From Zoroaster sp. YZ-2022 (lineage: Eukaryota; Echinodermata; Asteroidea; Forcipulatida; Zoroasteridae): a DNA stretch of 64,000 nt. Below the pieces are notes generated by a model. The model was not told the DNA's origin. It saw nothing but the letters and a program-made list of their open reading frames with translations, and ran no database searches. Of this stretch, positions 4,744 to 53,830 are shown piece after piece; position 1 is the stretch's first letter, and each line of letters begins with the position of its first letter. The position numbers and the translations under genes are program-made. The DNA lies in assembly GCA_029582265.1 (NCBI GenBank), contig CM055817.1, positions 57,606,340 to 57,670,339 on the forward strand, written 5' to 3'.

Positions 4744-5156
4744 TTAACCCTAACCCCCTAGGTATTCTGGCTAGGAACCTTCCTCAATCACACAAAATGC
4801 TACAAAATGTCTTCATAAAATTTGGAAGGTTCCTGAATACTACAAAATCACCCAATATATTGTGCTGTACTTCGTGTGTAGGGTGCCCACTGCCTCAATC
4901 ACACAAAATCACACATACCTGTACCCTTTGCCTTTATCCCTTTATTATGAACAAAAATACATGTTTTTTGGAGGTTTTTTTTGTTGGCTCAGTCACCTGG
5001 TATTGTATTCCTAAATTGATACATGGTGTGAAATGTATGCAAATAATGCCATTTTATTATTACCAGTGCATAAAATATATAGCATCCTTCCTCAATCACA
5101 CAAAATGCTCCAATACCTATAGAGGATTTTGTGTGATGTGGGGTGGTTAGGGTTAA
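4744..5156 (+). mobile_element. TTAA element D, unexpanded copy
   Basis: Begins TTAACCCTAACCCCCTAGG and ends GGGTGGTTAGGGTTAA. The opening 'ggtattctggctaggaac' is the segment repeated about 12 times in the D copy at 25199. Its internal word is 'atcacacaaaat', found near the left end and after 4891 and 5090, with the complement 'attttgtgtgat' near the right end. The 25199 copy has a different word in the same slots. The TTAA boundary and CCCT terminus suggest a piggyBac-like mechanism. Confidence 0.8.
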
Positions 5157-5202
5157 TGAAAAATCCATACGTGTATTTGTATTAATAATATTTTTTAAAG
5201 GT

Positions 5203-5799
5203 GCAGTATCGTTACGATCCGAGCAGACTTTCCACAGGGCATGGAATCGTTGTCCTAGTTTAAGATGAATAATAATAATAATAATGTGTGGATTTATATA
5301 GCGCACGTATCCACCAACTAAGTGGTGCTCAAGGCGCATTATATTATTACCCCTGCTCATAAGGCTCATAAGGCTCATAAATCATTCCTGAAACCATCTC
5401 AGCTCCCTGGGGAGTATACAGCTCAATTGCTGCCATTTCTAGCGCATATAGAGCAAACCAACTCTGCCTTCACAGGTACCCATTTAACCCCTGGGTGGAG
5501 AGAAGCAATTATGATTAAGTGTCTTGCTCAAGGACACAAGTGTCACGGCCGTGATTCGAACCCACATTCTGTTGCTAACACCAGAACTTGAATCCGGTAA
5601 GCTAGACCGCTCGGCCACGACACCCCATAGTGACTGAACATCACTTGATGAACATAGTGACTGAAAATTACTGCCTCATTTATGCAGTAGCAACGCTAAT
5701 ATGACCTTATCATGTGGGTATTATGGCAGTCACTGAGTTAATCTAAAACTAGCACTCCGATTCCATGCCCTGTTGATTGTAATGATATTGTTCCTTTAA
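5203..5799 (-). mobile_element. T2-like MITE interrupted by a SINE
   Basis: Left part 5203-5268 carries 'gcagtatcgttacgatc' and 'ggcatggaatcg'; right part from about 5630 carries 'gtgactgaaaattactg', 'aaaactagcactccg' and 'ttccatgccctgttga'. The missing middle is replaced by the SINE at 5269. Part of the target, 'gatgaacatagtgactg', is repeated next to the SINE head. Confidence 0.8.
5269..5626 (-). mobile_element. tRNA-derived SINE, full length
   Basis: Read on the minus strand, the head has a pol III A box (TGGCCGAGCGGT, 5606-5617) and B box (GGGTTCGAATC, 5553-5563), as in a leucine/serine-type tRNA with a long variable arm. The body holds 'cttgagcaagacactta' and 'ggtacctgtgaaggc'. The 3' tail contains 'gcgctatataaatccacac' and ends in a short (ATT)n. 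It lies inside a T2-like MITE. The RNA would be a SINE transcript, not a tRNA. Confidence 0.9.
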
Positions 5800-6189
5800 T
5801 ATAAATATTCTACATGTACATGTACGCGCATTTACAAGAGTAATTGGACTGTAACTTTTTTGTTTAATTACCAGAAATACGAATAATATTCATAAGAATA
5901 TTTTTTAATAAAACTATTCTACATGTACATGTACGTGCATTTACAAGTGAAATCTGACTTTAAATTTATTTACCAAAAATATTAATATTTTTCATGTATT
6001 TGTGTAATAAATACACTGTATTCTACATACATGTACGTGCATTTACAAGTGAAATTTTACTTTAACTTTTTAAAATTTAATTACCAGTTACATGTACCGG
6101 TATATGAATATTTTTTATAATAATATAAATATTCTACATGTACGTGTACGTGTACGTGCATTAAACAAGTGAAATTTGACTGACTTCTT

Positions 6190-7690
6190 TTAACCCTAGC
6201 CTTCCCAAATCTTCCCAAATCCTCTTTGCTAAAGTGAAGGATTTTAAAGGATTGAGGTTACATGCTACATGCTCTTTGCTAAAGTGAAGGATTTTGGGGG
6301 ATTGAGGTTACATGCTACATGCTCTTTGCTAAAGTGAAGGATTTTGAAGGATTTTGAAGGATTGAGGTTACATGCTACACGCTCTTTGCTAAAGTGAAGG
6401 ATTTTGGAGGATTGAGGTTACATGCTACATGCTCTTTGCTAATGTGAAGGATTTTGGAGGATTGAGGTTATTAGGCATACTTGCCTTTCCATGGTACATG
6501 TACATCCATGTTTGTTGTAGTGATTGCAAGGTCAGTGCTTGGGTCAGTGAACACTGTTTATTGCTCCATGCATGCAGGGAGTGTCCCTGGCCATGTACAT
6601 GTACATGTATCACAGATTAGAAACACATGTGTGCATACATGTCATGTGCTTGCTTTACTATTGAAGGATTTTGGAGGATTCAGGTTATGTGTAAGCAAAT
6701 GGGCCTAGGGAGTTAGGAAGGATTCAGGTTATGTGTAAGCAAATGGGCCTAGGGAGTTAGGAAGGATTCAGGTTATGTGTAAGCAAATGGGCCTAGGGAG
6801 TTAGGAAGGATTCAGGTTATGTGTAAGCAAATGGGCCTAGGGAGTTAGGAAGGATTCAGGTTATGTGTAAGCAAATGGGCCTAGGGAGTTAGGAAGGATT
6901 CAGGTTATGTGTAAGCAAATGGGCCTAGGGAGTTAGGAAGGATTCAGGTTATGTGTAAGCAAATGGGCCTAGGGAGTTAGGAAGGATTCAGGTTATGTGT
7001 AAGCAAATGGGCCTAGGGAGTTAGGAAGGATTCAGGTTATGTGTAAGCAAATGGGCCTAGGGAGTTAGGAAGGATTCAGGTTATGTGTAAGCAAATGGGC
7101 CTAGGGAGTTAGGAAGGATTCAGGTTATGTGTAAGCAAATGGGCCCAGGGAGTTAGGAAGGATTCAGGTTATGTGTAAGCAAATGGGCCAAGGGAGTTAG
7201 GAAGGATTCAGGTTATGTGTAAGCAAATGGGCCTAGGGAGTTAGGAAGGATTCAGGTTATGTGTAAGCAAATGGGCCTAGGGAGTTAGGAAGGATTCAGG
7301 TTATGTGTAAGCAAATGGGCCTAGGGAGTTAGGAAGGATTCAGGTTATGTGTAAGCAAATGGGCCTAGGGAGTTAGGAAGGATTCAGGTTATGTGTAAGC
7401 AAATGGGCCTAGGGAGTTAGGAAGGATTCAGGTTATGTGTAAGAAAGTGGGCCTAGGGAGTTAGGAAGGATTCAGGTTATGTGTAAGCAAATGGGCCTAG
7501 GGAGTTAGGAAGGATTCAGGTTATGTGTAAGCAAATGGGCCTAGGGAGTTAGGAAGGATTCAGGTTATGTGTAAGCAAATGGGCCTAGGGAGTTAGGAAG
7601 GATTCAGGTTATGTGTAAGCAAGTGGGCCTAGGGAGTTAGGAAGGATTCAGGTTATGTGTAAGCAAGTGGGCCTAGGGAGTTAGGGTTAA
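6190..7690 (+). mobile_element. TTAA element B, large expanded copy
   Basis: Starts TTAACCCTAGCCTTCCCAAA and ends GGGAGTTAGGGTTAA. In order it has: 4-5 short units built on 'ctttgctaaagtgaagg' (6225-6425); a conserved 250-bp core (6470-6670) with 'cctttccatggtacatg', 'gtagtgattgcaaggtc' and 'cagattagaaacacatg'; then a 44-bp array to the right end. The same core recurs at 18540, 23905, 34460 and 47500. Nothing suggests translation. It is inserted in the 105-bp array at a TTAA. Confidence 0.88.
6675..7686 (+). repeat. 44-bp minisatellite inside element B, about 23 units
   Basis: Unit marked by 'gattcaggttatgtgtaagc' and 'aaatgggcctagggagttag', spacing 44 bp (6721 to 6765). Nearly homogeneous: only a few units vary (for example 'ggcccaggg' at 7141, 'aagaaagtggg' at 7441). 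The last unit runs directly into the terminal AGGGTTAA, so the array is flush with the element end. Confidence 0.95.
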
Positions 7691-7832
7691 TTTAATTATC
7701 AGGTATATGAATATTTTTCATAATATTTGTTTAATAAATATTTTACATTTATTTCCCAATGAAATTTGACTTAAATTAAATGTGTTAATTCCTGTAGATT
7801 ACATACGTACATGTACAGCGTATCTTCTTTAC

Positions 7833-8094
7833 TTAACCAGTTCTCGTCAGAGGCCATGTATACACGCAATTTTTTTTTGCACCACGGACCGGAGAGCGTC
7901 TATACACGCCAAAGGAAACTCCGGAATATTTGTATGCATGCTCGGTTGACGTGGCAACGAGCCGAGTGTACAGTGACATGCTCGGTAGACGTGGCCACGC
8001 GCTGTGGAAGCTTCCATTAACGTGTTTGTGTGGGGAAAAGAAACCCACACAGGGGCCCAGAAAAACTTTTTAAAAACTGGTTAATAACATTGAT
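7833..8094 (+). mobile_element. TTAA element G, copy 1
   Basis: Begins TTAACCAGTTCTCGTCAGAG and ends AACTGGTTAA. The characteristic interior is 'gtgtatacacgcaa' followed by a T run, 'cggagagcgtctatacacgc' and 'ggggcccagaaaaac'. Other copies are at 14839, 56634 and 63305. Higher in CpG than its surroundings. No coding capacity. Confidence 0.82.
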
Positions 8095-8384: not shown

Positions 8385-9300
8385 GATTCAAGATTCAAGA
8401 TTCAAGATTTTATTTATTGTCATGCAAAAAATCACATGAAAATTGATTTCCCAGTGTACACTGATTTAAAAATACAATACATTTAAAAAAAATTTAAAAA
8501 AAATTATTTACTTACAAAACAATCATCAAAACTAAAGAAGCAATAGGGATTCAGGACAATGGGGTGACTAGGGAAGGAAATGAGGGAAAAGGAAATGGGT
8601 AAGGCAGGGTAGGATATGGGGAAGGGGGAAGGTTGGGTTAAAGCACAGCAAGGGAAAGGGACAAAACTATCTGGTGAAGGTTAAGTTAAAAATCTGAATG
8701 GCCCATGGTAAAAATGAACATTTAAACCTGTTGGTTTTCAGACTAAGTTGACATACTCTGCCAGATCGATTGCAAATAATGAAGGGATTAAGAGGATGGG
8801 TTGTATCGGAAAGAATGCCATTAAATTTGGTGATAAGGTGATTCTCTGCAATTTGCTGAATATTCTCAACATCAGTGCCAATTATCTTCATAGCTTGCTT
8901 ATCAATGCGTTGGAGTTTTTTACGACTGCACAATGTACAGTAAGTGAGTTAAACCAAGATATACAACAAAAAATCACAGTCGACTGGATGGTGCTCTGAT
9001 AAAACAGATTTAAAATCTGACAATCCACATTAAAAGATTTCAGTTTCCTTAAAAAGTAAAGCCGTTGATTGGCTTTTTTCTGGATCCTAGTTGTATTAGC
9101 ATTCCAATTTAATTTATCATCCACAACTGTTCCCAAGTATTTAAACTCTTGAACAACCTCAACATCGGTGTTATCAATTTGAACTGGTTCCTTCATATTT
9201 TTTATTTTCCGGAAATCAAAAATCATTTCTTTGGTTTTCTGTACGTTTAAAATCAGATGATTTATATTGCACCACTCCACAAATTTATCAATTTCACACC
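8385..9300 (-). mobile_element. Non-LTR retrotransposon, 5'-truncated
   Basis: On the minus strand it enters in the reverse transcriptase at about 9299 and runs through a short AT- and purine-rich 3' region. It ends in a 7-bp reiterated tail (TTGAATC, 3-4 copies, 8385-8411) typical of CR1/L2-type elements that finish in short tandem repeats. 5' truncation inside the reverse transcriptase is normal for target-primed insertion. Confidence 0.82.
8667..9299 (-). pseudogene. Reverse transcriptase C-terminal fragment, frameshifted
   Basis: Recognisable as the thumb and C-terminal part of a non-LTR reverse transcriptase. 'WCNINHLILNVQKTKEM' is followed by 'EFKYLG', 'KLNW' and 'QRLYFLRKL', matching the usual order after the palm domain. 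The downstream piece (8667-8933) has 'LQRIDKQAMKIIGTD' and 'LPWAIQIFN', also standard for the family's end. The two pieces are in different frames, with the shift near 8925-8935. The catalytic YxDD box is absent because the copy is 5' truncated. It cannot encode an active enzyme. CR1/L2/Rex-like affiliation is likely; the clade is not resolved. Confidence 0.85.
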
Positions 9301-9481
9301 TGATCGTGACGATATTCTTTTGAATTAGGTTTCCATAGGTTCATGTATCCTACTCTCCATGTATTCAGATACAATAAGGCTGTGTGTTTTCGATTATTTG
9401 GGAAATCGAAAATATTCGGATACCCAGGTACATTTAATTTTTTTATTATAAAAACACATAAATACTTCCGAATGTACATGT

Positions 9482-10074: not shown

Positions 10075-10720
10075 TTAACCCTCCTACACATGGAGGCCAC
10101 GCCGATCCACAAAATTCTGCTCTTGAGCAACCTTCAATACATGTACTTGTACAAGCCTGCTGTCCTTTCTAAGTAATCTTGCAAAATCAACTGTGTGTCA
10201 CCCAAGGCCACTGTAAATGTTTGAACATATTAGTATGGCCTCCAATGTATCAATGGGAGACCACTTTACCCTGCAATCTCAGTGGTGTGACAGTGCACAG
10301 AAGGGTAACCATAGGAGGCCACTGGCAACAGCTAATGGCTTGGAGTGGCCAGGTGGCCTGGATGGGTTGTTTCAAAAATTGCACTGATTGTAGGAGTGGT
10401 GTGACAGTGCACAGAAGGGTAACCATAGGAGGCCACTGGCAACAGCTAATGGCTTGGAGTGGCCTGGATGGGTTGTTTCAAAAATTGCACTGATTGTAGG
10501 AGTGGTGTGACAGTGCACAGAAGGGTAACCATAGGAGGCCACTGGCAACAGCTAATGGCTTGGAGTGGCCTGAATGGGTTGTTTCAAAAATTGCACTGAT
10601 TGTAGGAGTGGTGTGACAGTGCACAGAAGGGTAACCATAGGAGGCCACTGGCAACAGCTAATGGCTTGGAGTGGCCTGAATGGGTTGTTTCAAAAATTGC
10701 ACTGATTGTAGGAGGGTTAA
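10075..10720 (+). mobile_element. TTAA element C1 with 106-bp array (4 units)
   Basis: Begins TTAACCCTCCTACACATGG and ends TGTAGGAGGGTTAA. Unit anchors 'agtggtgtgacagtgcac' at 10281, 10395, 10501 and 10607 give 106-bp spacing, the first interval being 8 bp longer. Units carry 'ggccactggcaacagctaat' and the complement-like 'ggagtggcc'. Each unit ends 'tgattgtagg', the start of the element's own right terminus. Confidence 0.88.
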
Positions 10721-10738
10721 TAATTTCCTACCTCTGTA

Positions 10739-11126
10739 TTAACCCTCCTACTGTTTGACCATTTGAAACCATTCAAAATTTCCACTTACCAAAATGCCCA
10801 TTGGTTTTGTACACACATGGTGATACCATTTGAACAGTGTTGGTAGCAAGCTTTACTACCATTCAAATCCATTCAAATGCATAGAGGGTCCATTGATTCA
10901 CCACTTAGAAGTATCCAAACAAGGTTTTGTATTAGCTGTACTACATGTACCATTTGGAAAGATCCAAACAAGGTTTTGTATTAGCTGACCTACCATTCAA
11001 AACCATTTGGGGGAATCAATACTATACACAGTTATTTCACCATTCAAAACCACAAAAGCGAATGGTTTCAAATGGTGGATCAACTTGTATGAAAAAGGTA
11101 CATTGTACCAGAAGTAGGCGGGTTAA
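10739..11126 (+). mobile_element. TTAA element C2, copy 1
   Basis: Begins TTAACCCTCCTACTGTTTG and ends AGTAGGCGGGTTAA. The interior repeats the word 'ccattcaaaa'/'ccatttg' and its complement 'gaatgg'/'caaatgg' about ten times. A 40-bp segment with 'aaacaaggttttgtattagc' is duplicated (10916 and 10967). Its closest partner is C2 at 40727; the layout is shared with C5 at 38198, which uses a different word. Confidence 0.85.
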
Positions 11127-14838: not shown

Positions 14839-15091
14839 TTAACCAGTTCGCGTCGGAGGCCGTGTATACACGCAAATTTTTTTTTGGACAGCGGATCGGA
14901 GAGCGTCTAAACACGCCACAGGATTCTCGGGAATATTTGTATAGATTCCCGGTCGACGTGGCAACGAGCCATAAGCATATGGTGGAAGACACAGTCTCCC
15001 CGGTCACGCTCTGGTGAGCACCATTGTTCGTGTTTGTAAACCCGCCACGGGGTTCGGAAAAACTTTTTTATTCCCGATGCGAACTGGTTAA
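14839..15091 (+). mobile_element. TTAA element G, copy 2
   Basis: TTAACCAGTTCGCGTCGGAG at the left and CGATGCGAACTGGTTAA at the right. The interior has 'gtgtatacacgcaa', a T run, 'ggatcggagagcgtctaaac' and 'ttcggaaaaactttttta'. It is inserted in an H element: 'tctgctt' on the left resumes as 'cagctctatg' on the right. Confidence 0.83.
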
Positions 15092-15727: not shown

Positions 15728-16673
15728 TTAAACCCTCCCACTATTGCACTTTGGTGGGAAGATGCTATACAGGTCAAAACCAGTCAACTGCCCGTTTTTG
15801 ACTGTTGACCCAAATGTGTACACGGGGGCATTTTTGACTGGTTTTTACTGTCATTTTAACCACCCTCAACAATACAAGACAATGCTTTTACCAGTCAAAA
15901 AACGGTTGACTCATTTTGACCTGTAAATGTACTTACTACATGTAAGGTTTGACAGTGTTTGACTTATAAGTGCACTAGATACATGTATACCTTGGCAAGT
16001 ATATCAACATTTTGACTGATTTTGACCCTTGCAGTCACAGGTTTGACAGTGTTTGACTTTTAAGTGCACTAGATATATACATTGGCAAGTATATAAACAT
16101 TTTGACTGATTTTGACCCTTGCAGTCACAGAAGGTTTGACAGTGTTTGACTTTTAAGTGCACTAGATATACATTGGCAAGTATATCAACATTTTGACTGA
16201 TTTTGACCCTTGCAGTCACAGAAGGTTTGACAGTGTTTGACTTTTAAGTGCACTAGATATACCTTGGCAAGTATATCAACATTTTGACTGATTTTGACCC
16301 TTGTAGTCACAGGTTTGACAGTGTTTGACTTTTAAGTGCACTAGATATACCTTGGCAAGTATATCAACATTTTGACTGATTTTGACCCTTGTAGTCACAG
16401 GTTTGACAGTGTTTGACTTTTAAGTGCACTAGATATACCTTGGCAAGTATATCAACATTTTGACTGATTTTGACCCTTGTAGTCACAGGTTTGACAGTGT
16501 TTGACTTTTAAGTGCACTAGATATACCTTGGCAAGTATATCAACATTTTGACTGATTTTGACCCTTGTAGTCACAGGTTTGACAGTGTTTGACTTTTAAG
16601 TGCACTAGATATACCTTGGCAAGTATATCAACATTTTGACTGATTTTGACCCTTGTAGTAGTAGGAGGGTTAA
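15728..16673 (+). mobile_element. TTAA element C3 with 88-bp array
   Basis: Left end TTAAACCCTCCCACTATTG (one base added relative to the family) and right end GTAGTAGGAGGGTTAA. The first 220 bp hold the word 'cagtcaaaa' and its complement 'ttttgactg' repeatedly. The single-unit relative at 53510 carries the same leader in the opposite orientation. Confidence 0.85.
15948..16660 (+). repeat. 88-bp minisatellite inside C3, 8 units
   Basis: Anchors 'gtttgacagtgtttgac' at 15948, 16041, 16134, 16225, 16313, 16401, about 16489 and about 16577. Left units are 91-93 bp, the right ones exactly 88 bp. The right units are almost identical, suggesting recent amplification from that side. Confidence 0.92.
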
Positions 16674-16847: not shown

Positions 16848-17158
16848 TTAACCCTAACCCTGCCAGACGCAGCACAGTGCATCAGGTGGAAAAGTCTGGT
16901 GCACTTTTATGCATTCAGCTGTCAACACCAGTGCATAAGCAGCCAAGTCTGAGGCTATTGAGAGCTGGTCCCATTGAACAATGCCAGAGTTGTATCCTGC
17001 TGCGTTTGGTGACCACAGACTCTGAGGCAGTTCGGCCTTGAGATTTGTGACCAGATGGATCTTGCTGCACTCTGCAGCCAAGTCACTTTGACAAACGATG
17101 CAATCTGATGCGTCTGGCAGGGTTTCTAGCCAAAATACCCTGGAGGGTTAGGGTTTAA
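16848..17158. mobile_element. TTAA element K
   Basis: TTAACCCTAACCCTGCCAGA continues into 'cgcagc'; the right side has 'gatgcgtctggcagggttt' and ends GGAGGGTTAGGGTTTAA. The inner inverted repeat CCCTGCCAGACGCA/TGCGTCTGGCAGGG is perfect. Single copy in this window, not array-bearing. Confidence 0.75.
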
Positions 17159-17814: not shown

Positions 17815-17995
17815 TTAAAGGGACATTATCATCACAATCAGAGCAGACTTTCAACAGGGCATGGAATTGGTATTGACTTAATACCTGTCTCTAAAGTGCA
17901 AGGGTTGTAGCCAGCAATGTACATTTGTATTTGGGTGTCATTTGAAAGCTACATACACAAATATTTGCTAAATGGACACCCTGTTTTATTATTAA
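17815..17995 (+). mobile_element. T2-like MITE, variant interior
   Basis: Starts TTAAAGGGACATTATCATCA and 'caacagggcatggaattgg' like other T2 copies, then diverges into 'gtctctaaagtgcaagggtt' and 'tttgggtgtcatttg', and ends 'ctgttttattatTAA'. A second copy (18863-18929 plus 20224-20323) has the same interior. Both right ends abut another TTAAAGG, so the elements sit head to tail sharing TTAA. Confidence 0.72.
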
Positions 17996-18866
17996 CCCTA
18001 ACTCCCTAGGCCCATTTGCTTGTAACACATAACCTGAATCCTCCCTAACTCCTTAGGCCCATTTGCTTACACATAACCTGAATCCTTCCTAACTCCCTAG
18101 GCCCATTTGCTTGTAACACATAACCTGAATCCTCCCTAACTCCTTAGGCCCATTTGCTTACACATAACCTGAATCCTTCCTAACTCCCTAGGCCCATTTG
18201 CTTGTAACACATAACCTGAATCCTCCCTAACTCCTTAGGCCCATTTGCTTACACATAACCTGAATCCTTCCTAACTCCCTAGGCCCATTTGCTTACACAT
18301 AACCTGAATCCTCCCTAACTCCCTAGGCCCATTTGCTTACACATAACCTGAATCCTTCCTAACTCCCTAGGCCCATTTGCTTACACATAACCTGAATCCT
18401 TCCTAACTCCCTAGGCCCATTTGCTTACACATAACCTGAATCCTTCCTAACTCCCTAGGCCCATTTGCTTCCACATAACATGAATCCTTCCTAACTCCCT
18501 AGGCCCATTTGCTTACACATAACCTGAATCCTCCAAAATCCTACATCCAGTAGTAAGGCAAGCACATGGCATGTATGCACACATGTATTTCTAATCTGTG
18601 ATACATGTACATGGCCAGGGACCCTCCCTGCATGCATGGAGCAATAAACAGTGTCCTCTGACCCAAGCACTGACCTTGCAATCACTACAACAAACATGGA
18701 TGTACATGTACATGTACCATGGAAAGGCAAGTATGCCTAATAACCTCAATCCTCCAAAATCCTTCACATTAGCAAAGAGCATGTAGCATGTACATGTACA
18801 TAACATCAATCCTTCAAAATCCTTCATAATCCTTCATTTTGGAGGATTTGGGAAGGTTAGGGTTAA
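17992..18866 (-). mobile_element. TTAA element B, copy 2, with target duplication
   Basis: TTAACCCTAACTCCCTAGG at the left and GGAAGGTTAGGGTTAA at the right. It has a 44-bp array (about 12 units, some extended by 'gtaaca'), then the conserved core (18540-18770), then 'aaatccttcattttggagg'. Flanks 'gttttattat' and 'aggggcagtatcatcac' rejoin as in the uninserted sequence at 20311-20335. Confidence 0.9.
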
Positions 18867-20227: not shown

Positions 20228-20319
20228 TACCCGTCTCTAAAGTGCATGGGTTGTAGCAAGCAATACCTTTGGGTGTCATTTGGAACCTGTGTTTGTGAAA
20301 TGGACACCATATTTTATTA

Positions 20320-20347
20320 TTAAAGGGACAGTATTGTCACGATCAGA
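20320..20347 (+). mobile_element. T2-like MITE 5' terminus and uninserted TTAA site
   Basis: TTAAAGGGACAGTATTGTCA followed by 'cgatcag', interrupted at about 20348 by E-family sequence. The preceding 'attttattat' plus this TTAA is the empty counterpart of the B insertion site at 17992. Confidence 0.7.
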
Positions 20348-23189: not shown

Positions 23190-24139
23190 ATAACCCTAAC
23201 TCCCTAGGCCCTTTTGCTCACACATAACCTGAATCCTTCCTAACTCCCTAGGCCCATTTGCTTACACATAACCTGAATCCTCCCTAACTCCCTAGGCCCA
23301 TTTGCTTACACATAACCTGAATCCTTCCTAACTCCCTAGGCCCATTTGCTTACACATAACCTGAATCCTTCCTAACTCCCTAGGCCCATTTGCTTACACA
23401 TAACCTGAATCCTTCCTAACTCCCTGGGCCCATTTGCTTACACATGCATAACCTGAATCCTTCCTAACTCCCTAGGCCCATTTGCTTACACATAACCTGA
23501 ATCCTTCCTAACTCCCTGGGCCCATTTGCTTACACATAACCTGAATCCTTCCTAACTCCCTAGGCCCATTTGCTTACACATAACCTGAATCCTTCCTTAC
23601 TCCCTAGGCCCATTTGCTTACACATAACCTGAATCCTTCCTAACTCCCTAGGCCCATTTGCTTACACATAACCTGAATCCTTCCTAACTCCCTAGGCCCA
23701 TTTGCTTACACATAACCTGAATCCTTCCTAACTCCCTAGGCCCATTTGCTTACACATAACCTGAATCCTTCCTAACTCCCTGGGCCCATTTGCTTACACA
23801 TAACCTGAATCCTTCCTAACTCCTTAGGTCCATTTGCTTACACATAACCTGAATCCTTCCTAACTCCCTAGGCCCATTTGCTTACACATAACCTGAATCC
23901 TCCAAAATCCTTCAGTAATAAAGCAAGCACATGACATGTATGCACATGTACATGTATGTGTTTCTAATCTGTGATACATGTACATGGCCAGGGACCCTCC
24001 CTGCATGCATGGAGCAATAAACAGTGTCCACTGACTCAAGCACTGACCTTGCAATCACTACAACAAACATGGATGTACATGTACCATGGAAAGGCAAGTA
24101 TGCTTTATAACCTCAATCCTCCAAAATCCTTCACTTTAG
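23190..24139 (-). mobile_element. TTAA element B, copy 3, one end lost
   Basis: The left end 'ataaccctaactccctagg' has a point change in TTAA. The 44-bp array has about 16 units (23195-23905; one unit has an extra 'atgc' at 23446). The conserved core is at 23905-24110. The right terminus is missing: 'aatccttcactttagc' runs straight into the Penelope-like sequence. Confidence 0.85.
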
Positions 24140-24310
24140 CAGGTTTTGAGGTGTTGCATGGTGGAGATAGATGTTATCGAGTTCTTTTTGGTACACCATG
24201 TAATAATCTCTTCTTGGAAGAAGTGATGGCTCTGAGAAGAGCCGGTTGGTTTGTTCTCAACGTTTCGACTAGTCTGCTCTAGTCATCGTCAGGAGACTGC
24301 TGGTTTCAGT
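24140..24310 (-). mobile_element. Penelope-like element terminus (candidate), copy 2
   Basis: Same block order as 13730 on the minus strand: hammerhead-like core, 'gaaacgttgagaac', a 'ggctcttctcagagcc' hairpin, 'acatggtgt', then 'caccatgcaacacctcaaaa'. Sequence identity outside these blocks is low, so the order is conserved across two families. Confidence 0.5.
24262..24292 (-). ncRNA. Hammerhead-ribozyme-like core, consensus boxes
   Basis: On the minus strand CTGACGA (fits CUGANGA), one extra T, a perfect stem GACTAG/CTAGTC with loop AGCAGA, then GAAAC. Both catalytic boxes match the hammerhead consensus. The flanking stems I and III are short and not verified by folding. Confidence 0.45.
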
Positions 24311-26490: not shown

Positions 26491-26829
26491 CGACTTAGAA
26501 TGGAAGCTTACATGTACATGTATGTAAATTTGAGCAAATATTTCAAACATGATATTTACATGTATGTGAGAAGTCTTAACTGATTGGTCTGTGCATACTG
26601 AGATACCAGACAAGAATGGACCATGTTTTAAACATTCCGTACTAAAATTGGAGATAAAACGCTTGAAAGTTATCACATCAAAATTAGTAAAAGGCTTTAA
26701 AAAATAATAATAATGTTTACATTATAAAGGTGTGAATTTTCAAGATTTCTTCAATAATGACACTTTCACAGAATGGTGATCTGTACATAATCTCTCATAT
26801 GAATGCATTACCAATATGTTTACACTGTC
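26491..26829. other. Unassigned AT-rich spacer
   Basis: Includes 'tacatgtacatgtatg' at 26509 and 'tttacatgtatgtg' at 26555; nothing else recognised. Confidence 0.3.
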
Positions 26830-27385
26830 AAAACTTCTGTGACTGCAAGGGTCAAAATCAGTCAAAATGTTGATATACTTGCCAAGGTATATCTAGTGCA
26901 CTTAAAAGTCAAACACTGTCAGCCCTTCTGTCACTGCAAGGGTCAAAATCGGTCAAAATGTTGATATACTTGCCAAGGTATATCTAGTGCACTTAAAAGT
27001 CAAACACTGTCAGCCCTTCTGTCACTGCAAGGGTCAAAATCGGTCAAAATGTTGATATACTTGCCAAGGTATATCTAGTGCACTTAAAAGTCAAACACTG
27101 TCAGCCCTTCTGTCACTGCAAGGGTCAAAATCAGTCAAAACGTTGTATTTGCCAGGATATACGGTAAATCTAATGCACTTAAAAGTCAAACACTGTTAAA
27201 CATTACATGTAGTAAGTACATTTACAGGTCAAAATGAGTCGACTGTTTTTAACTGGTAAAGGGAATTATCTTGTATTGTTGACGGTGGTCAAAATGACAG
27301 GCAAAACCAGTCAAAAATGCACCTGTGTATACAGTTGGTTCAACAGTCAAAAACAGTCAGTTGACTGATTTTGACCCTTGTAGGT
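26830..27385 (-). mobile_element. C3-type element, termini lost, 3-4 units
   Basis: Complement of C3: 'ctgcaagggtcaaaatc', 'gttgatatacttgccaagg' and 'gtgcacttaaaagtcaaac' repeated with about 91-bp spacing from 26840 to 27190, then the leader with 'cagtcaaaaatgc' and 'acagtcagttgactg'. Neither TTAACCCTCC terminus is present. Confidence 0.8.
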
Positions 27386-34106: not shown

Positions 34107-34147
34107 GATTCCATGCCCAGTTGATCATGATGATACTGTCCCTTTAA
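34107..34147 (-). mobile_element. T2-like MITE terminal fragment
   Basis: 'ttgattccatgcccagttga' and 'gatgatactgtccctttaa': the last 40 bp of a T2 element. Its terminal TTAA is also the left TTAA of element B at 34144. Confidence 0.75.
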
Positions 34148-34820
34148 CCCTAATTTCCTAGGCCCATTTGCTTACACATAACCTGAATCCTTCCTAACTC
34201 CCTAGGCCCATTTGCTTACACATAACCTGAATCCTTCCTAACTCCCTAGGCCCATTTGCTTACACATAACCTGAATCCTTCCTAACTCCTAGGCCCATTT
34301 GCTTACACATACATGTAACCTGAATCCTTCCTAACTCCCTAGGCCCATTTGCTTACACATAACATGAATCCTTCCTAACTCCCTAGGCCCATTTGCTTAC
34401 ACATAACCTGAATCCTTCCTAACTCCCTAAGCCCATTTGCTTACACATAACCTGAATCCTCCAAAATCCTTCAGTAGTAAAGCAAGCACATGACATGTGT
34501 GCACACATGTGTTTCTAATCTGTGATACATGTACATGGCCAGGGACCCTCCCTGCATGCGTGGAGCAATAAACAGTGTCCACTGACCCAAGCACTGACTT
34601 TGCAATCACTACAACAAACATGGATGTACATGTACCATGGAAAGGCAAGTATACCTAATAACCTCAATATTCACTTTAGCAAAGAGCATGTGTAGCATGT
34701 AACCTCAGTCCTTCAAAATCCTTCACTTTAGCAAAGAGCATGTAGCATGTAACCTCAATCCTTCAAAATCCTTCACTTTAGCAAAGAGGATTTTGGAGGA
34801 TTTGGGAAGGTTAGGGTTAT
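34144..34820 (-). mobile_element. TTAA element B, copy 4
   Basis: Left TTAACCCTAATTTCCTAGG; right 'gggaaggttagggttat', with TTAA changed to TTAT. It has a seven-unit 44-bp array, the conserved core (34460-34660) and three units built on 'tttagcaaagagcatg'. Inserted at the terminal TTAA of a T2 MITE. Confidence 0.87.
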
Positions 34821-34893: not shown

Positions 34894-35220
34894 TTAACCC
34901 TCCTATGGGTTAACACTCAAAGACACTCAAAATTTGTATGTCTATCTTAACCCATTGACTTTGTGCAGTGCACTCAAATACATGCAAACATATGTGGCTG
35001 TGATAGGAGGTCAAACCCAAAGACACTCAAAATTTGTATGTAACTCCCAACCCATTGACTTTGTGCAGTGCACTCAAGTCAAACCAAAACCAAGTACATA
35101 CACAGCTCTGTGTGACTCTGTGGTTTGACCTATTGGCAATGCAACCAAAAATACTCAAGTGAGTGTCTGTGGGTGCCGTGCTGACTGGGCCAAATTTCAG
35201 CCTGGGCATAGGAGGGTTAA
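34894..35220 (+). mobile_element. TTAA element C4
   Basis: Begins TTAACCCTCCTATGGGTTAA and ends GGCATAGGAGGGTTAA. Recurrent word 'cactcaaa' (and 'actcaagtgagtg'). A 100-bp segment with 'aaagacactcaaaatttgta' and 'acccattgactttgtgcagt' is present twice (34915, 35017), a two-unit stage of tandem growth. It shares its right TTAA with the B mini-element at 35217. Confidence 0.82.
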
Positions 35221-35306
35221 CCCTAACTCCCTAGACAACAAAGGCAGTTGGAGGATTTTGAAGGATTTTTATTGTTCAGTAACAGTGCTTAGGGAGTTAG
35301 GGTTAA
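35217..35306. mobile_element. TTAA mini-element with B termini, 90 bp
   Basis: TTAACCCTAACTCCCTAG at the left and CTTAGGGAGTTAGGGTTAA at the right, a perfect inverted repeat of about 18 bp. Only 55 bp lie between. It holds 'ggaggattttgaaggatttt' but no 44-bp unit, so B termini alone suffice to define a mobile unit. Confidence 0.8.
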
Positions 35307-36985: not shown

Positions 36986-37557
36986 AATTAAACACCCAGG
37001 AGGTTCAGGGGGCTTTGTCCTCTAGACCAATGGGAGACCCAGGCCTGCTACCCACAGGAGGTTCAGGGGGCTTTGTCCTCTAGACCAAAGGGAGACCCAG
37101 GCCTGCTACCCACAGGAGGTTCAGGGGGCTTTGTCCTCTAGACCAAAGGGAGACCCAGGCCTGCTACCCACAGGAGGTTCAGGGGGCTTTGTCCACTAGA
37201 CCAATGGGAGACCCAGGCCTGCTACCCACAGGAGGTTCCGGGGCTTTGTCCTCTAGACCAAAGGGAGACCCAGGCCTGCTACCCACAGGAGGTTCAGGGG
37301 GCTTTGTCCCCTAGATCAAAGGGAGACCCGGGCCTGCTACCCACAGGAGGTTCAGGGGCTTTGTCCCCTAGATCAAAGGGAGACCCAGGCCTGCTACCCA
37401 CAGGAGGTTCAGGGGGCTTTGTCCTCTAGACCAAAGGGAGACCCAGGCCTGCTACCCACAGGAGATTCCGGGGGCTTTGTCCTCTAGACCAAAGGGAGAC
37501 CCAGGCCTGCTACCCACAGGAGGTTCAGGGGGCTTTGTCCTCTAGTCCAAAGGGAGA
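36985..37557 (+). repeat. P-family 58-bp array, about 10 units
   Basis: Unit 'caggaggttcagggggcttt' + 'gtcctctagaccaaaggg' + 'agacccaggcctgctaccca', 58 bp. The last unit is fused at 'gggagaccc' to the start of duplication copy 2, so the array lies between the two segmental copies. Confidence 0.93.
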
Positions 37558-38197
37558 CCCCGCTAAAGTTGCTCAGGACCTACCAAAGTCTTGTTGTTTT
37601 AGGCTAGGCTGTATTTGCACAGTAAACATGTGCATATATATAATGTACATATCCACATACTGTACTTGTACACGTTTGCATTAAAGTCACATTCCCTAAT
37701 CACAGATCAGTGATTTGCAAAATTGCGCTTAAATTTAATTTTAGAAAATGTATTTACAATGTACAGTACATTTGTGTCCTCGATTGTTAAATCTGAATGA
37801 AAAAAATTTCCACTCTGCTTATTGTACCATGTACATGTATGTGGATGATTTGTTTAAAGATCCTACAATGTATACATTGTATGGAATTAGTAACTCAAAA
37901 ATAACCATAAAAAAATGAAACGTCCATCAAATACAAAATAGGCCAAACGCAATGTTTTTAATTTCTCCTTAAGTTTTATTATAGAACAATATTTATTTAT
38001 AACTTTTTATACTTATTTTTAATTATGTAAATTTGACTGTTTTCAGCCCACCAGCTGCTTTGTCAGATTATAATAACCCATCAATAATAATAACTATCAC
38101 ATCCCTATCGATCAACAGGTGATCAGTCATGTGATTTCTCAAGATTTTTTTCCAGATTTCAGGATTTGTTACAAATCTCCCAAAAGAGAAAGCCACT
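37558..38197 (+). repeat. Segmental duplication, copy 2 (left of C5)
   Basis: Aligns with 36262-36897 with few differences (for example 'acattgtatgg' for 'acattgtacgg'). It ends 'aaagagaaagccact' directly before the TTAA of C5; the rest of the copy continues after 38515. Confidence 0.9.
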
Positions 38198-39448: not shown

Positions 39449-39839
39449 AGGCTGTGCCAGGTATCCGGGTACCCGGATATTCGACTGAAACAATCATTAC
39501 CCGGTTCTATTTATCGGTTCCAATTACCCGTAAACGATTTTTGAAATTTTTGACTGAACATTTAAGCCACACAAATGGAAGTCTACAATTTTTTTATTAA
39601 CAAAATGTGTGTGGAATGGGGATGCTACGAGTCGTTTTTAATATAGAGGCAAGAAATTATTACAGTAAGTCCACATTTATTATGACTCTAATAAAACAAG
39701 AGAAACTTGTGTTCATATTGGTTATTTTATTCAGGAATATTTATGTGTTGTTACAAAATAGTTTACGGGTACCCGGGTATCTGAAGATTTCCAATTTCTG
39801 GTATCTGGTTCTCGAAATAACCGTAAACGCACAACCTTA
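39449..39839 (-). mobile_element. E-family element, intact reverse copy
   Basis: 'aggctgtgccaggtatccgg' and 'gtacccggat' at the left; 'gggtacccgggtatctgaag', 'tttccaatttctggtatc' and 'acgcacaacctt' at the right. The complement of 'ctcttgttttattagagtc' lies in the middle. Confidence 0.8.
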
Positions 39840-39893: not shown

Positions 39894-40414
39894 AGTGCTG
39901 AGACGGTTAACCAGTTAATCCTAACCCAGTTAACCCTAACCCAGTTAACTGGTTAATCAGTTAACCCTAACCCAGTTAACTGTTTAACCAGTTAACCCTA
40001 ACCCAGTTAACTGGTTAATCAGTTAACCCTAACCCAGTTAACTGGTTAATCAGTTAACCCTAACCCAGTTAACTGGTTAATCAGTTAACCCTAACCCAGT
40101 TAACTGGTTAACCAGTTAACCCTAACCCAGTTAACTGGTTAATCAGTTAACCCTAACCCAGTTAACTGGTTAACCAGTTAATCCTAACCCAGGTAACTGG
40201 TTAACAAGTTAACCCTTACCCAGTTAACTGGTTAACTGACCAAAACTGTATTAACTGTTTAGAATTTTGCTAGACTTTCTGTTTTGCCCCATTGGTTATT
40301 CAACAATCATTGTGGGAAATTTATGCATTGTTACATCTGGTTTTGTGGAAGTCGGCTGTCAACTTTTTTTTAACCATTTAAACGGTTAGTGAACTACCGG
40401 TTATTCACAGCACT
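39894..40414. mobile_element. hAT-like element with AGTGCTG ends and 31-bp array
   Basis: Left 'agtgctgagacggttaacc', right 'accggttattcacagcact'. It carries about ten units of a 31-bp repeat (39905-40240) built from 'gttaactggttaatcag' and 'ttaaccctaaccca', plus 'ttaaacggttagtgaactac'. No clear target duplication. The array includes CCCTAACCC, a telomere-like word, but the unit is not telomeric. Confidence 0.55.
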
Positions 40415-40509: not shown

Positions 40510-40730
40510 TTAAAGGGACATTATCGTCACAATCAACAGGGCATGGAATTGGAGTGCTAGTTTTAGATTAGCTCAGTGACTGAAAATAATACCTCACAAT
40601 GTACTGGTGCTGCTGTAACTATAAATGAGTCGGTAATTTTCAGTCACTGTGTTCATCTTAAATTCTAGAGGACACCGATTCCATGCCCTGTTGAAAGTCT
40701 CCTCTGATCGTGACGATATTGCCCCTTTAA
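40510..40730 (+). mobile_element. T2-like MITE, complete
   Basis: TTAAAGGGACATTATCGTCA at the left, 'gatcgtgacgatattgcccc' and TTTAA at the right, 221 bp, with the full set of internal landmarks. Its right TTAA is the insertion point of C2 at 40727. Confidence 0.88.
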
Positions 40731-44076: not shown

Positions 44077-44526
44077 TAAGGCCAAAAAAAAGTCTCTGGT
44101 TTTTCTGGTCATAGATCGGCTTCAAAATCGGTGCAATGACGCACTTTTTTTTTTTTGCAAACAGGGAAATATGTACTGTACATGCATATAATGTACATGT
44201 ACATGCGGGGACCAAATTTCCCATATATACAAAGTATGGTGGCTAAGAGAGGCCTCACAAATCAGGCAAACGCCTATAAATGTCAAAATGTCATTTAAAA
44301 CACAGCACAGCAGAATTCCAATCGATCCAGCAATTTTGGCTGCAATTGGATATCTTTTCATAGCAAAGAAAACTACATGTAAAAATGCTGACGCGTGGGT
44401 CTGAGGCGATGCTGACGCGTGGGTCTGAGGCGATGCTGACGCGTGGGTCTGAGGCGATGCTGACGCGTGGGTCTGAGGTGATGCGCACAGAGACCAGAAA
44501 CTGGAGACTTTTTTGGGGGGCCTAAG
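44077..44526 (-). mobile_element. R-family element with 4-unit 24-bp array
   Basis: From 'aaggccaaaaaaaagtctct' to 'ctggagacttttttgggggg', reverse orientation to 26128. The 24-bp unit 'gctgacgcgtgggtctgagg' + 'cgat' occurs four times (44388-44480). Confidence 0.85.
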
Positions 44527-46486: not shown

Positions 46487-47828
46487 TTAACCCTAACTCC
46501 CTAGGCCCATTTGCTTACACATAACCTGAATCCTTCCTAACTCCCTAGGCCCATTTGCTTACACATAACCTGAATCCTTCCTAACTCCCTAGGCCCATTT
46601 GCTTACACATAACCTGAATCCTTCCTAACTCCTAGGCCCAATTGCTTACACATAAACTGAATCCTCCTAACTCCCTAGGCCCATTTGCTTACACATAACC
46701 TGAATCCTCCCTAACTCCCTAGGCCCATTTGCTTACACATAACCTGAATCCTTCCTAACTCCCTAGGCCCATTTGCTTACACATAACCTGAATCCTCCCT
46801 AACTCCCTAGGCCCATTTGCTTACACATAACCTGAATCCTTCCTAACTCCCTAGGCCCATTTGCTTACACATAACCTGAATCCTTCCTAACTCCCTAGGC
46901 CCATTTGCTTACACATAACCTGAATCCTTCCTAACTCCCTAGGGCCCATTTGCTTACACATAACCTGAATCCTTCCTAACTCCCTAGACCCATTTGCTTA
47001 CACATAACCTGAGTCCTTCCTAACTCCCTAGGCCCATTTGCTTACACATAACCTGAATCCTTCCTAACTCCCTAGGCCCATTTGCTTACACATAACCTGA
47101 ATCCTTCCTAACTCCCTAGGCCCGTTTGCTTACACATAACCTGAATCCTTCCTAACTCCCTAGGCCCGTTTGCTTACACATAACCTGAATCCTTCCTAAC
47201 TCCCTAGGCCCATTTGCTTACACATAACCTGAATCCTTCCTAACTCCCTAGGCCCATTTGCTTACACATAACCTGAATCCTTCCTAACTCCCTAGGCCCA
47301 TTTGCTTACACATAACCTGAATCCTTCCTAACTCCCTAGGCCCATTTGCTTACATAACCTGAATCCTTCCTAACTCCCTAGGCCCATTTGCTTACACATA
47401 ACCTGAATCCTTCCTAACTCCCTAGGCCCATTTGCTTACACATAACCTGAATCCTTCCTAACTCCCTAGGCCCATTTCCTTGACACATAACCTGAATCCT
47501 CCAAAATCCTTCAGTACATGTAGTAAAGCAAGCACATGACATGTATGCACACGTGTGTTTCTAATCTGTGATACAGTATATGGCCAGGGACCCTCCCTGC
47601 ATGCATGGAGCAATAAACAGTGTCCACTGACCCAAGCACTGACCTTGCAATCACTACAACAAACATGGATGTACATGTACCATGGAAAGGCAAGTGTGCC
47701 TACATGTAATAACCTCAATCCTCTAAAATCCTTCACTTTAGCAAAGAGCATGTAGCATGTAACCTCAATCCTTCAAAATCCTTCACTTTAGCAAAGAGGA
47801 TTTTGGAGGATTTGGTAAGGTTAGGGTT
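46487..47828 (-). mobile_element. TTAA element B, copy 5, long array
   Basis: Left TTAACCCTAACTCCCTAGG; right 'ggtaaggttagggttttta' (TTAA lost). About 23 units of 44 bp (46495-47500), with isolated variants (for example a 4-bp shorter unit at 47350), then the core and two 'tttagcaaagag' units. Confidence 0.88.
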
Positions 47829-48226
47829 TTTAAGAATCCTCGGTTTCATTACCAGAAAGATTATAATAAAAAAAGAAAGTGCCTGTATGCCTAGACGTGT
47901 TTGTTCTTACATGTATGTTGATTGCTCAATGCTGTTCATGAATACACTTTGCAGGAAACACAGGTACATATAGTTGAGACTAGAGTGTAGTCAGACCGAG
48001 GAAACGAGACCTTCAGAGCACGCTCATTGCTATAGGGCAAGGGTGAACCTTTACAGGAACGGTCTCTTAGAAGAATCTCAGGAAACGAGAAGCATAATCA
48101 ATACATAATCTTGAACCATAAGGTTAACATAATAAACCCAGTGTGTTACATGGCCAGCGGATTTGTGATAACATTCTCAATCTTTCCATTCATATTTACA
48201 AGTTTTTAAAAGAAATTAAACAGGCG
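47829..48226. other. Unassigned stretch
   Basis: No arrays, terminal repeats or recognisable exon. Confidence 0.35.
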
Positions 48227-48728
48227 TTATCCCTAACCTTCCCAAATCCTCCAAAATCCTCTTTGCTAAAGTGAAGGATTTTGGAGGATTGAGGTTATGT
48301 GTAAGCAAATGGGCCTAGGGAGTTAGGGAGGATTCAGGTTATGTGTAAGCAAATGGGCCTAGGGAGTTAGGAAGGATTCAGGTTATGTGTAAGCAAATGG
48401 GCCTAGGGAGTTAGGAAGGATTCAGGTTATGTGTAAGCAAATGGGCCTAGGGAGTTAGGAAGGATTCAGGTTATGTGTAAGCAAATGGGCCTAGGGAGTT
48501 AGGAAGGATTCAGGTTATGTGTAAGCAAATGGGCCTAGGGAGTTAGGAAGGATTCAGGTTATGTGTAAGCAAATGGGCCTAGGGAGTTAGAGAGGATTCA
48601 GGTTATGTGTAAGCAAATGGGCCTAGGGAGTTAGGAAGGATTCAGGTTATGTGTAAGCAAATGGGCCTAGGGAGTTAGGAAGGATTCAGGTTATGTGTAA
48701 GCAAATGGGCCTTGGGAGTTAGGGTTAA
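48227..48728 (+). mobile_element. TTAA element B, copy 6, coreless
   Basis: Left 'ttatccctaaccttcccaaa' (TTAA changed to TTAT), right GGGAGTTAGGGTTAA. One 'ctttgctaaagtgaagg' unit joins directly to a 44-bp array of about ten units. The 250-bp core found in the other large copies is missing, apparently by deletion between repeats. Confidence 0.87.
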
Positions 48729-48732
48729 TAAG

Positions 48733-50153: not shown

Positions 50154-50193
50154 GAGCAGGTTCTTTCTCAAAGACAAAATGATATAAAGATAC

Positions 50194-52373: not shown

Positions 52374-52610
52374 ATACATAATAATAATAATAATATCACA
52401 GCATTTGTAAGGCGCTCTTACTCTGTAAAACATTCAAAGGCGCCGGTCTAAATGGAAAAGAAAATTCTCAAATAGATGTAAAAGCAAGTGTAAACAGATA
52501 TGTTTTCAGTCACTGCTGAAAGAGACATATTTCCCTGAGGTCTTCTTGTAGGGAGTTCCACAGCCTAGGTGCGATACAGGAAAATGCCCTGTCCCCGTTA
52601 ACTGGCTAAG
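52374..52610 (-). mobile_element. SINE-like element with (AAT)n end
   Basis: Starts with (AAT)6 then 'aaggcgctcttactctgtaa' and 'aaaggcgcc', continues 'acagatatgttttcagtca' and 'gggagttccacagcctagg', and ends 'aatgccctgtccccg'. The layout resembles dispersed invertebrate short elements whose 3' ends carry 'gcgctttacaaa'-type motifs. No pol III boxes seen. Confidence 0.45.
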
Positions 52611-52672
52611 CGAGTGGAGGGGGGGGGGGGGGGACAAAGAGCATGTTGTTGGTCGACCTTAAACCTGATCTG

Positions 52673-52855
52673 ACTAAATGTGATGCTTGTCAAAGATCCT
52701 TTTTGATAAAAACCATTTTTAATATCAATCAAAGATGCTTTTGAATATATATTGCCTCAAAGGATAACACATACGTTTAATATTCAAATGCATCTTTGTT
52801 TGATATTAAAAATGGTTTTTATCAAAAAGGATCTTTGACAATCATCACATTTAGT
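52673..52855. mobile_element. Palindromic MITE, near-perfect hairpin
   Basis: ACTAAATGTGATGCTTGTCA at the left and TGACAATCATCACATTTAGT at the right. Complementarity continues through 'aagatcctttttgataaaaa' and 'ccatttttaatatcaa' to a short centre near 52765. 183 bp in total with arms of about 85 bp. Confidence 0.88.
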
Positions 52856-52924
52856 AGAGGGTCGTAATATCTACGTATACATCTAGAGACAATCCAAAAA
52901 CAAAATCCCCATATTTTTTTACAA

Positions 52925-53405
52925 TTAACCCTCCTACACATGGAGGCCACTCCGATGCACTAAATTCTGTTCTTTAGCAACCTTCAGTTCATACATATAC
53001 AAGCCTGCTGTCCTTTCCAAGTAATTACAAAATCAACTCTGTGTCACCCAAGGCCACTGTAAATGTTTGAACATAATTATTAGTATGGCCTACAATGTAT
53101 TGATGGGATACCACTTTACCCTGTAATCTCAGTGGTGTGACAGTGCACAGAAGGGTAACCATAGGAGGCCACTGGCAAGAGCTAATGGCTTGGAGTGGCC
53201 TGAATGGGTTGTTTCAAAAATTGCACTGATTGTAGGAAGGTTAGTATGGCCTGCAATGTATCAAATGGAGACCACCTTACCCTGTAATCTCAGTGGTGTG
53301 ACAGTGCACAGAAGGGTAACCATAGGAGGCCATTGGCAACAGCTAATGGCTTGGAGTGGCCTGAATGGGTTGTTTCAATAATTGCACTGATTGTAGGAGG
53401 GTTAA
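52925..53405 (+). mobile_element. TTAA element C1, short copy
   Basis: TTAACCCTCCTACACATGG to TGTAGGAGGGTTAA. Only two 106-bp units, separated by a second copy of part of the leader ('tagtatggcctgcaatgtat'). The period here is therefore a longer composite, unlike the simple arrays at 10075 and 21653. Confidence 0.87.
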
Positions 53406-53509
53406 AATACTAAATTACTTTTAAAGGAAAGTATCCATTCAGTAATAGAGATTCTGCTGTGGTTTGTTTCATGTGAATAAAGTAATTGAAAGTTAAAAGG
53501 TTGAGCTTA

Positions 53510-53830
53510 TTAACCCTCCTACTACTACAAGGGCCAAAATCAGTCAAAATGTTGATATACGTACTTGCCATGGTATATCTAGTGCACTTAAAATTCAAAT
53601 ACTGTCAAACCTTATGTGTAGTAAGTACATTTACAGGTCAAAATGAGTCAACCGTTTTTTACTGGTAAAAACGTTATGTTCACAGTGGTCACAGTGGTCA
53701 AAATGACAGTAAAAACCAGTGAAAAATGCCCCTGTGTGCACATTTGGGTCAACAGTCAAAACAGGCAGTTGACTGGTTTTGACCTCTGTAGCTACTTGCC
53801 ACTAAAGTGCAGCTATAGTAGGAGGGCTAA
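53510..53830 (-). mobile_element. TTAA element C3, unexpanded copy
   Basis: TTAACCCTCCTACTACTACA at the left and 'gctatagtaggagggctaa' at the right (TTAA changed to CTAA). Contains exactly one 88-bp unit and the leader with 'cagtcaa'/'ttgactg' words. It is the monomeric counterpart of the eight-unit copy at 15728. Confidence 0.88.

What the first reader, a model, noticed from the sequence alone, without database searches (positions are those of the whole stretch)
4744..53830. A set of TTAA-bounded elements with shared ends, unrelated interiors and built-in minisatellites
At least 17 elements in 64 kb begin TTAACCCT and end AGGGTTAA (or a one-base derivative), yet fall into eight or so interiors (B, C1-C5, D, K) that do not align to one another. 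Most carry a tandem array, with unit length fixed within a family (44, 106, 88 or 42 bp) and flush with a terminus. The shared 8-13 bp ends with TTAA suggest one piggyBac-like machinery mobilising many payloads; the arrays suggest a linked amplification process. I know of no description of such a set, but I could not search.
Basis: partly seen in the sequence, partly recalled or inferred. Interest (0 to 1): 0.8.

Follow-up and report, generated by a model that had tools for sequence, protein, structure and literature searches.

The report
piggyBac-type mini-transposons with repeated ends
The window holds many short non-coding jumping elements that insert at TTAA like known piggyBac transposons, and some have one end copied many times in a row; similar hitchhiking repeats are already known in other animals, so this is a well-documented new case rather than a new kind of system.

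Summary
The elements are real: 19 delimited in the window, 16 with both ends within one base of TTAACCCT/AGGGTTAA; 4344 exact-ended places of 296-316 bp genome-wide against 22 for the reversed pattern. They look like non-autonomous piggyBac-type MITEs: TTAA plus CCCT ends, four contiguous empty sites (two with TTAA), at least 116 piggyBac transposase matches in the genome. The shared 8 bp is close to the superfamily hallmark. Beyond it the ends form two groups that hardly mix (6 mixed places; 1487 CCCTAAC/CCCTAAC), which speaks against one machinery. 'Unrelated interiors' is partly wrong: B, D, K and a 90-bp element, and C1, C38 and C34, share subterminal sequence; C106 and C88 align with none. 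Arrays are tandem copies of one terminus, but a local excess: 11 of 19 elements here, 1 of 15 B/C106/C88 places in 200 kb. No autonomous partner of either group was seen at 37 transposase loci; a third window family does match transposase-bearing elements. Precedents: Xenopus T2/Xmix-Xstir, coral CMITE, Galileo, Tetris.

The parts
4744..5156 (+). D1: MITE of the CCCTAAC group, single unit, 413 bp
   Evidence: exact TTAACCCT/AGGGTTAA; 12-bp terminal repeat incl. TTAA
25199..25985 (+). D2: same ends as D1, different interior, 13 x 42-bp units; the first 11 begin with the complete TTAACCCTAACCCCC terminus
6190..7690 (-). B1: 23 x 44-bp terminus units; second 50-bp array near the other end (6222-6470)
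17992..18866 (+). B2: 12 x 44/47-bp units; right TTAA shared with a T2-like end
   Evidence: empty site at 20238-20347, 74% over 128 bp
23190..24141 (+). B3: 16 units, right end not recognised
34144..34820 (+). B4: about 7 units; left TTAA shared with a T2-like end
46487..47830 (+). B5: 23 units; right end two bases off
48227..48728 (-). B6: 10 units
10075..10720 (+). C106a: CCCTCCTA group, 3.4 x 106-bp units flush with the right end
   Evidence: empty-site paralogues 39638-39713, L019, L023, reading GTAA
21654..22608 (+). C106b: 7 x 106-bp units, both ends degraded
52925..53405 (+). C106c: 2 x 161-bp units, a different duplication
10739..11126 (+). C1a: array-free
   Evidence: empty site with TTAA at 39540-39662 and in L019
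40727..41101 (+). C1b: array-free; left TTAA shared with a T2-like end
15729..16673 (-). C88a: 8 x 88-91-bp units at the right end
53510..53830 (+). C88c: array-free
26822..27200 (+). degenerate C88 array, ends not recognised (not among the 19)
16848..17157 (+). K: CCCTAAC group, array-free
34894..35220 (+). C34: array-free
   Evidence: exact ends
35217..35306 (+). 90-bp MITE; shares TTAA 35217-35220 with C34
   Evidence: 17-bp terminal repeat incl. TTAA; 90-bp copies in L021 and L030
38198..38518 (+). C38: array-free
   Evidence: empty site at 36801-37003, 94.6% over 204 bp, reading ATAA
7833..8084 (+). P1: CCAGTTCGCGTC-ended MITE (only the left end clear)
   Evidence: 85-86% over 209-214 bp to upstream ends in L037/L044
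14839..15091 (+). P2: CCAGTTCGCGTC-ended MITE, both ends
56634..57270 (-). P3: CCAGTTCGCGTC-ended MITE (only one end clear), between T2-like ends 56569 and 57387
63305..63668 (+). P4: CCAGTTCGCGTC-ended MITE with 2 x 112-bp subterminal tandem

Best explanation
These are most likely non-autonomous piggyBac-type DNA transposons (MITEs). Shown: two terminal groups, TTAA-CCCTAAC(Y)(Y)CC (B, D, K and the 90-bp element) and TTAA-CCCTCCTA(Y) (the C families), bounded by TTAA, each with more than a thousand genomic places, and hardly mixing. Inferred: each group was moved in trans by its own piggyBac transposase, recognising TTAA plus 10-15 bp and subterminal sites; interiors differ because MITEs keep ends and lose or replace the rest. 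Arrays, shown: in all four array families the tandem unit contains the array-side terminus (42, 44, 88-91, 106 or 161 bp), and array-free or single-unit relatives exist. Read from the junctions: the outer breakpoint lies at or within a few bases of the TTAA/element junction in D, B and C106; in C88 the units lack about 14 bases of C88a's own end and fit a few-base breakpoint only if the variant end CCCTTCTGTG seen elsewhere was the ancestral one. Inferred: a terminal segment was duplicated by short-homology repair or slippage, perhaps after transposase cleavage or during gap repair; unequal exchange or slippage lengthened it, and some arrayed copies (notably B) were transposed with the array. 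Extra ends may act as extra transposase-binding sites, as reported for Galileo; not tested here.
For: Genome counts with controls: 4344 against 22; C106 terminus 2049 exact copies against 0. Contiguous empty sites for B2 and C1a (TTAA), C106a (GTAA) and C38 (ATAA). At least 116 PF13843 matches; 4 of 4 frames tested confirmed by Pfam. Family P: same terminus and 174-214 bp at 71-86% with upstream ends of transposase matches in L037 and L044, shorter stretches with L043: a positive control for 'piggyBac MITE with transposase-bearing relative' in this genome; only the 5' ends of those relatives were read. Ends hardly mix: 6, 1487. Terminus reiteration and junctions; single-unit relatives in L010, L016, L019. 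A transposase-bearing element begins inside a C88 copy in L037; in L048 a C38 copy breaks off at the candidate end.
Against: No element with either end group and a transposase of its own was seen at the 37 loci sampled of at least 116; 29 of the 37 were read upstream only, 24 of these in a 751-bp stretch, and a candidate own end could be read by eye at about 23. Two of four empty sites do not read TTAA. Of 19 joined flanks only these four were convincing; B1, B3, B5, C88a and C1b also gave junction-spanning matches at 64-77%, of which only C1b's were displayed, and they did not help. Two subterminal arrays do not include the terminus (B1/B4 50-bp, P4 112-bp). Likeness of inner breakpoints to the terminus was not clearly above chance. 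B units are almost as alike between elements (97.1%) as within (97.7%).
Confidence: 0.82

Rival explanations
1. One piggyBac-like transposase mobilises all families through the shared 8-13 bp ends.
For: All share TTAACCCT; the coral authors suggested that the CC[C/T]T motif with a conserved interior might allow cross-mobilisation (PMC2872659).
Against: The shared 8 bp is superfamily-generic; beyond it the ends split into two groups that hardly mix (6 mixed; 1487 CCCTAAC/CCCTAAC; 0 mixed among the 49 grouped of 50 places listed, first 16 Mb of one contig, counted by eye). Transposase loci here show many different candidate ends after TTAA.
Confidence: 0.1
2. The ends are a by-product of an ancestral satellite; the elements are dispersed satellite fragments.
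For: In D2 each of the first 11 units carries the complete terminus; a free 31-bp array with TTAACCCTAACCC lies at 39927-40235.
Against: 8 of 19 window elements have no array but both ends; 1487 CCCTAAC-paired places are only 292-322 bp long; the non-array end also carries the terminus; empty sites show insertion.
Confidence: 0.03
3. TTAA MITEs of the Kolobok/T2 superfamily rather than piggyBac.
For: T2/Kolobok also use TTAA and one T2-MITE carries tandem repeats in Xenopus (PMC6004289); a T2-like family is present in the window.
Against: Kolobok/T2 ends start with RR (AGGRR in T2) after TTAA; these start CCC. No Kolobok transposase search was made.
Confidence: 0.05

Closest known systems
Xenopus T2-MITE with Xmix/Xstir (PMC6004289, PMC9659126 and PMC12628747, passages only; the original papers were not seen)
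   Same: TTAA-targeting MITE group with many subfamilies; one carries a tandem repeat amplified from its own sequence
   Different: T2 ends are AGGRR (Kolobok), here CCCT; the reviews name an internal segment or the TIR as source of Xstir, here the unit holds the outermost terminus, in four families
Coral CMITE families (PMC2872659, parts 1-3 of 4 read)
   Same: piggyBac-type MITEs, TTAA, mostly CCCT ends, several families, a transposase-bearing relative found for one family, tandem arrays
   Different: CMITE arrays are of whole elements, and interiors are conserved while ends vary
Galileo and Tetris (PMC3688188 abstract; PMC3573991 and PMC4079207 passages)
   Same: tandem repeats in or derived from the terminal repeats; in Galileo they hold further transposase-binding sites
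   Different: P-superfamily or foldback-like elements with long TIRs that carry the repeats; here short TIRs and one end only
Pokey and mPok of Daphnia (PMC3849761, passages)
   Same: piggyBac elements and MITEs, some inserted in the TTAA flanking another copy (23% of mPok, 7% of Pokey)
   Different: no terminus arrays described in the passages seen

Membership tests
piggyBac superfamily (non-autonomous) | TTAA target site duplicated on insertion | tested here: met
   empty sites of B2 and C1a have one TTAA, those of C106a and C38 one GTAA or ATAA; 16 of 24 motifs in the sample and 30 of 40 in the window follow an intact TTAA
piggyBac superfamily (non-autonomous) | terminal motif CC[C/T]T | tested here: met
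   all 9 families (D, B, K, 90 bp, C106, C88, C1, C34, C38) start CCCT at their better end; motif from PMC2872659
piggyBac superfamily (non-autonomous) | piggyBac transposase source with matching ends | tested here: inconclusive
   not seen for the two CCCT groups at 37 of at least 116 loci; seen (5' end only) for the CCAGTTCGCG family
piggyBac superfamily (non-autonomous) | precise, footprint-free excision | not testable with these tools
   needs alleles or an excision assay
MITE | short, non-coding, terminal inverted repeats, high copy number | tested here: met
   90-1501 bp; inverted termini; of 13 stop-to-stop frames of 150 aa or more only one (35129-35671) overlaps an element, without evidence of a gene; 4344 places in one length band
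Kolobok / T2 | RR (AGGRR) directly inside TTAA | tested here: not met
   CCCT ends; the separate TTAAAGGG family does show it
Foldback / Galileo type | long terminal repeats carrying the tandem repeats | tested here: not met
   perfect terminal repeat 7-17 bp incl. TTAA in the 9 elements with TTAA at both ends; terminus array at one end only in the 8 elements examined

The most novel reading that the evidence does not exclude
Recurrent, independent tandem multiplication of one transposon end (at least five events in four families: 42, 44, 88/91, 106 and 161 bp, and possibly a 141-bp form with full TTAA termini elsewhere) is seeded at the transposase cut site itself, so that these TTAA elements acquire trains of usable ends. 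This would be a general route by which cut-and-paste elements make minisatellites and compete for transposase.
Probability: 0.25. Interest if true: 0.6.

Novelty: new member of a known kind. Interest (0 to 1): 0.36.

Why it matters
The genome offers a natural series from array-free to highly arrayed copies of the same MITE families, with breakpoints readable to a few bases, beside many open-frame piggyBac transposases. That makes it a good place to test whether minisatellites start from transposition damage at element ends and whether multiplied ends help an element move. It also cautions that shared TTAACCCT ends alone do not imply one machinery.

Tried and rejected
Ancestral-satellite origin: rejected (array-free two-ended elements). 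Single machinery: disfavoured. The TTAACCCTAACTCCC end upstream of the transposase in L030 looked like a partner but is a complete 90-bp MITE. The CCCTCCTAC end in L037 is a C88 copy into which the transposase-bearing element is inserted. The idea that inner breakpoints are look-alikes of the terminus was not clearly above chance. The genome-wide counts of CCCTCCTA/CCCTCCTA pairs and of CCCTCCTACAATCAGTGCAAT without TTAA did not complete. The paper searches made returned no description of these families in what I saw of their listings; they cannot show that none exists. In one search, 7 places matching D were left out of the array count because none held the unit anchor; 4 of the 15 counted places held no anchor either, and two in L023 may be one element.
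Full report
Observation. The window lies on contig C2 of an unnamed 1.00-Gb, 616-contig genome. TTAACCCT occurs 37 times and AGGGTTAA 12 times; 24 pairs lie 100-2500 bp apart against a mean of 0.1 in 60 Markov sequences. Ends and homology give 19 elements: D1, D2, B1-B6, C106a-c, C1a, C1b, C88a, C88c, K, C34, C38 and one of 90 bp. Eight are exact at both ends, 16 are within one base at both, and B3, B5 and C106b are more degraded. A pattern search for exact ends 280-300 bp apart finds 4344 places genome-wide against 22 for the reversed pattern.

Ends. The first 8 bp are common, but beyond them there are two groups: CCCTAAC(Y)(Y)CC (B, D, K, 90 bp) and CCCTCCTA(Y) (C families). In the 50 places listed (first 16 Mb of one contig, counted by eye, by at least one recognisable end) 13 belong to the first group, 36 to the second and 1 to neither, none mixed; some C88 relatives have a variant such as CCCTTCTGTG or CCCTCTTA on one side. 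Genome-wide, 6 places mix the groups and 1487 pair CCCTAAC with itself, both with 270-300 bp between the motifs. The CCCTCCTA/CCCTCCTA count did not complete. In the 200-kb sample 16 of 24 group-specific motifs have intact TTAA before them, in the window 30 of 40, array units included; the reversed motifs occur 3 times in the sample and not in the window.

Interiors. B, D, K and the 90-bp element share 31-91 bp near the ends, and C1, C38 and C34 share 44-135 bp, at 63-88% identity; C106 and C88 did not align with any other family. D1 and D2 share about 55 bp at the left and 35 bp at the right but little else.

Insertion. Of 19 joined flanks tested against the window and all loci fetched by then, four give contiguous paralogous empty sites: B2 (TTAA, 74% over 128 bp), C1a (TTAA, 80% over 126 bp, with 21 bp on the left side), C106a (GTAA, 76 bp at 86-92% in three paralogues, and a weaker one) and C38 (ATAA, 94.6% over 204 bp; weaker paralogues differ there). 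C1a and C106a are inserted 18 bp apart in one repeat, and the paralogue at 39540-39713 lacks both. Elements also use TTAA at the edges of others: C34 and the 90-bp element share one TTAA, and B2, B4 and C1b each share a TTAA with a T2-like end. The same habit is reported for Pokey (PMC3849761, passages).

Source. The genome has at least 116 PF13843 matches, scored from 4547 candidates, most rows listing an open frame of 450 aa or more; 4 of 4 frames tested are piggyBac-type by Pfam. I looked at flanks of 37 (8 on both sides, 29 upstream only). A candidate own end could be read by eye at about 23, paired at both sides only for L032 and L027. None is of the two CCCT groups; where those ends appear they belong to MITE copies (L030; L037; L048). 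Three loci (L037, L043, L044) have TTAACCAGTTCGCGTCGG ends, and a MITE family in the window with this end (7833-8084, 14839-15091, 56634-57270, 63305-63668) matches L037 and L044 over 174-214 bp at 71-86%, and L043 over shorter stretches.

Arrays. In D2, B1, B2, B5, C106a-c and C88a (8 of the 11 arrayed elements) the tandem unit contains the array-side terminus, complete with TTAA in D2 and less its outermost bases in the others (about 5 in B, 6-7 in C106, about 14 in C88a); no further copy of the other terminus scored above 19 of 34. B3, B4 and B6 show the same unit anchor. Comparison with single-unit relatives places the outer breakpoint at or within a few bases of the TTAA/element junction in D, B and C106 with a few bp of short homology (my reading of the junctions). 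In C88 this holds only against the variant end TTAACCCTTCTGTGACTGC seen in relatives. C106c (161 bp) is a different duplication from the 106-bp arrays. Elsewhere, full TTAA-bearing C106 termini recur at 141-143-bp steps (C1:40706038-40706322) and at 141-142-bp steps (C1:45903580-45904005). Exceptions: the 50-bp array near the other end of B1 and B4 and the 112-bp repeat of P4 do not include the terminus. Within- against between-element identity of units is 97.7 and 97.1% for B, 98.7 and 87.0% for C106, 96.7 and 92.2% for C88, so B arrays were probably spread as arrays while the others look more element-specific.

The arrays are a local excess. Among 15 places matching B, C106 or C88 in 20 evenly spaced 10-kb stretches one has more than one unit, ten have one and four have no recognisable anchor. 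Tandem repeats with units of 20 bp or more and at least 2.5 copies cover 11.8 kb of the first 60 kb of the window and 17.1 kb of 200 kb in the sample, 7.4 kb of it in one stretch. The sample comes from contigs C1 and C3-C6 only and holds 1500 N.

Known or new. TTAA MITE groups with many subfamilies and a hitchhiking tandem repeat are in print for Xenopus (PMC6004289, passages), piggyBac MITEs with arrays for coral (PMC2872659, parts 1-3 of 4), and TIR repeats with further transposase-binding sites for Galileo (PMC3688188 abstract; PMC3573991 passages) and, as its authors suggest, Tetris (PMC4079207 passages). The kind is known; whether these exact families are named in Repbase or Dfam could not be checked. 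What is less usual is that one terminus, and in D2 the whole terminus with TTAA, was multiplied separately in several families. Whether that has a function, or starts from transposase cutting, is open.

Noticed in passing
window 276-57387 (19 sites at up to 3 mismatches, e.g. 40510-40730 and 56569-57387): T2/Kolobok-like TTAA family with ends TTAAAGGGRCARTATC; P3 lies between two such ends, and B2, B4 and C1b abut such ends at a shared TTAA.
   Followed up: partly
window 39927-40235: Free 31-bp satellite, 10 units, most holding TTAACCCTAACCCAG, with no recognised element around it.
   Followed up: partly
window 36997-37560, 57800-58439, 61427-62348: A 58-bp minisatellite (CAGGAGGTT...) at three places; the first begins at the C38 empty-site paralogue 36801-37003.
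   Followed up: no
window 44385-44484 and 59061-59376: A 24-bp minisatellite unit and its complement at two places (compared by eye).
   Followed up: no
window 8888-9340 (-): Reverse-transcriptase-like open frame of 150 aa (recalled resemblance, not searched).
   Followed up: no
G000:C5:14808908, 14828636, 14845189: Three similar-scoring piggyBac transposase frames of 639-641 aa within 40 kb, a possible local duplication.
   Followed up: no
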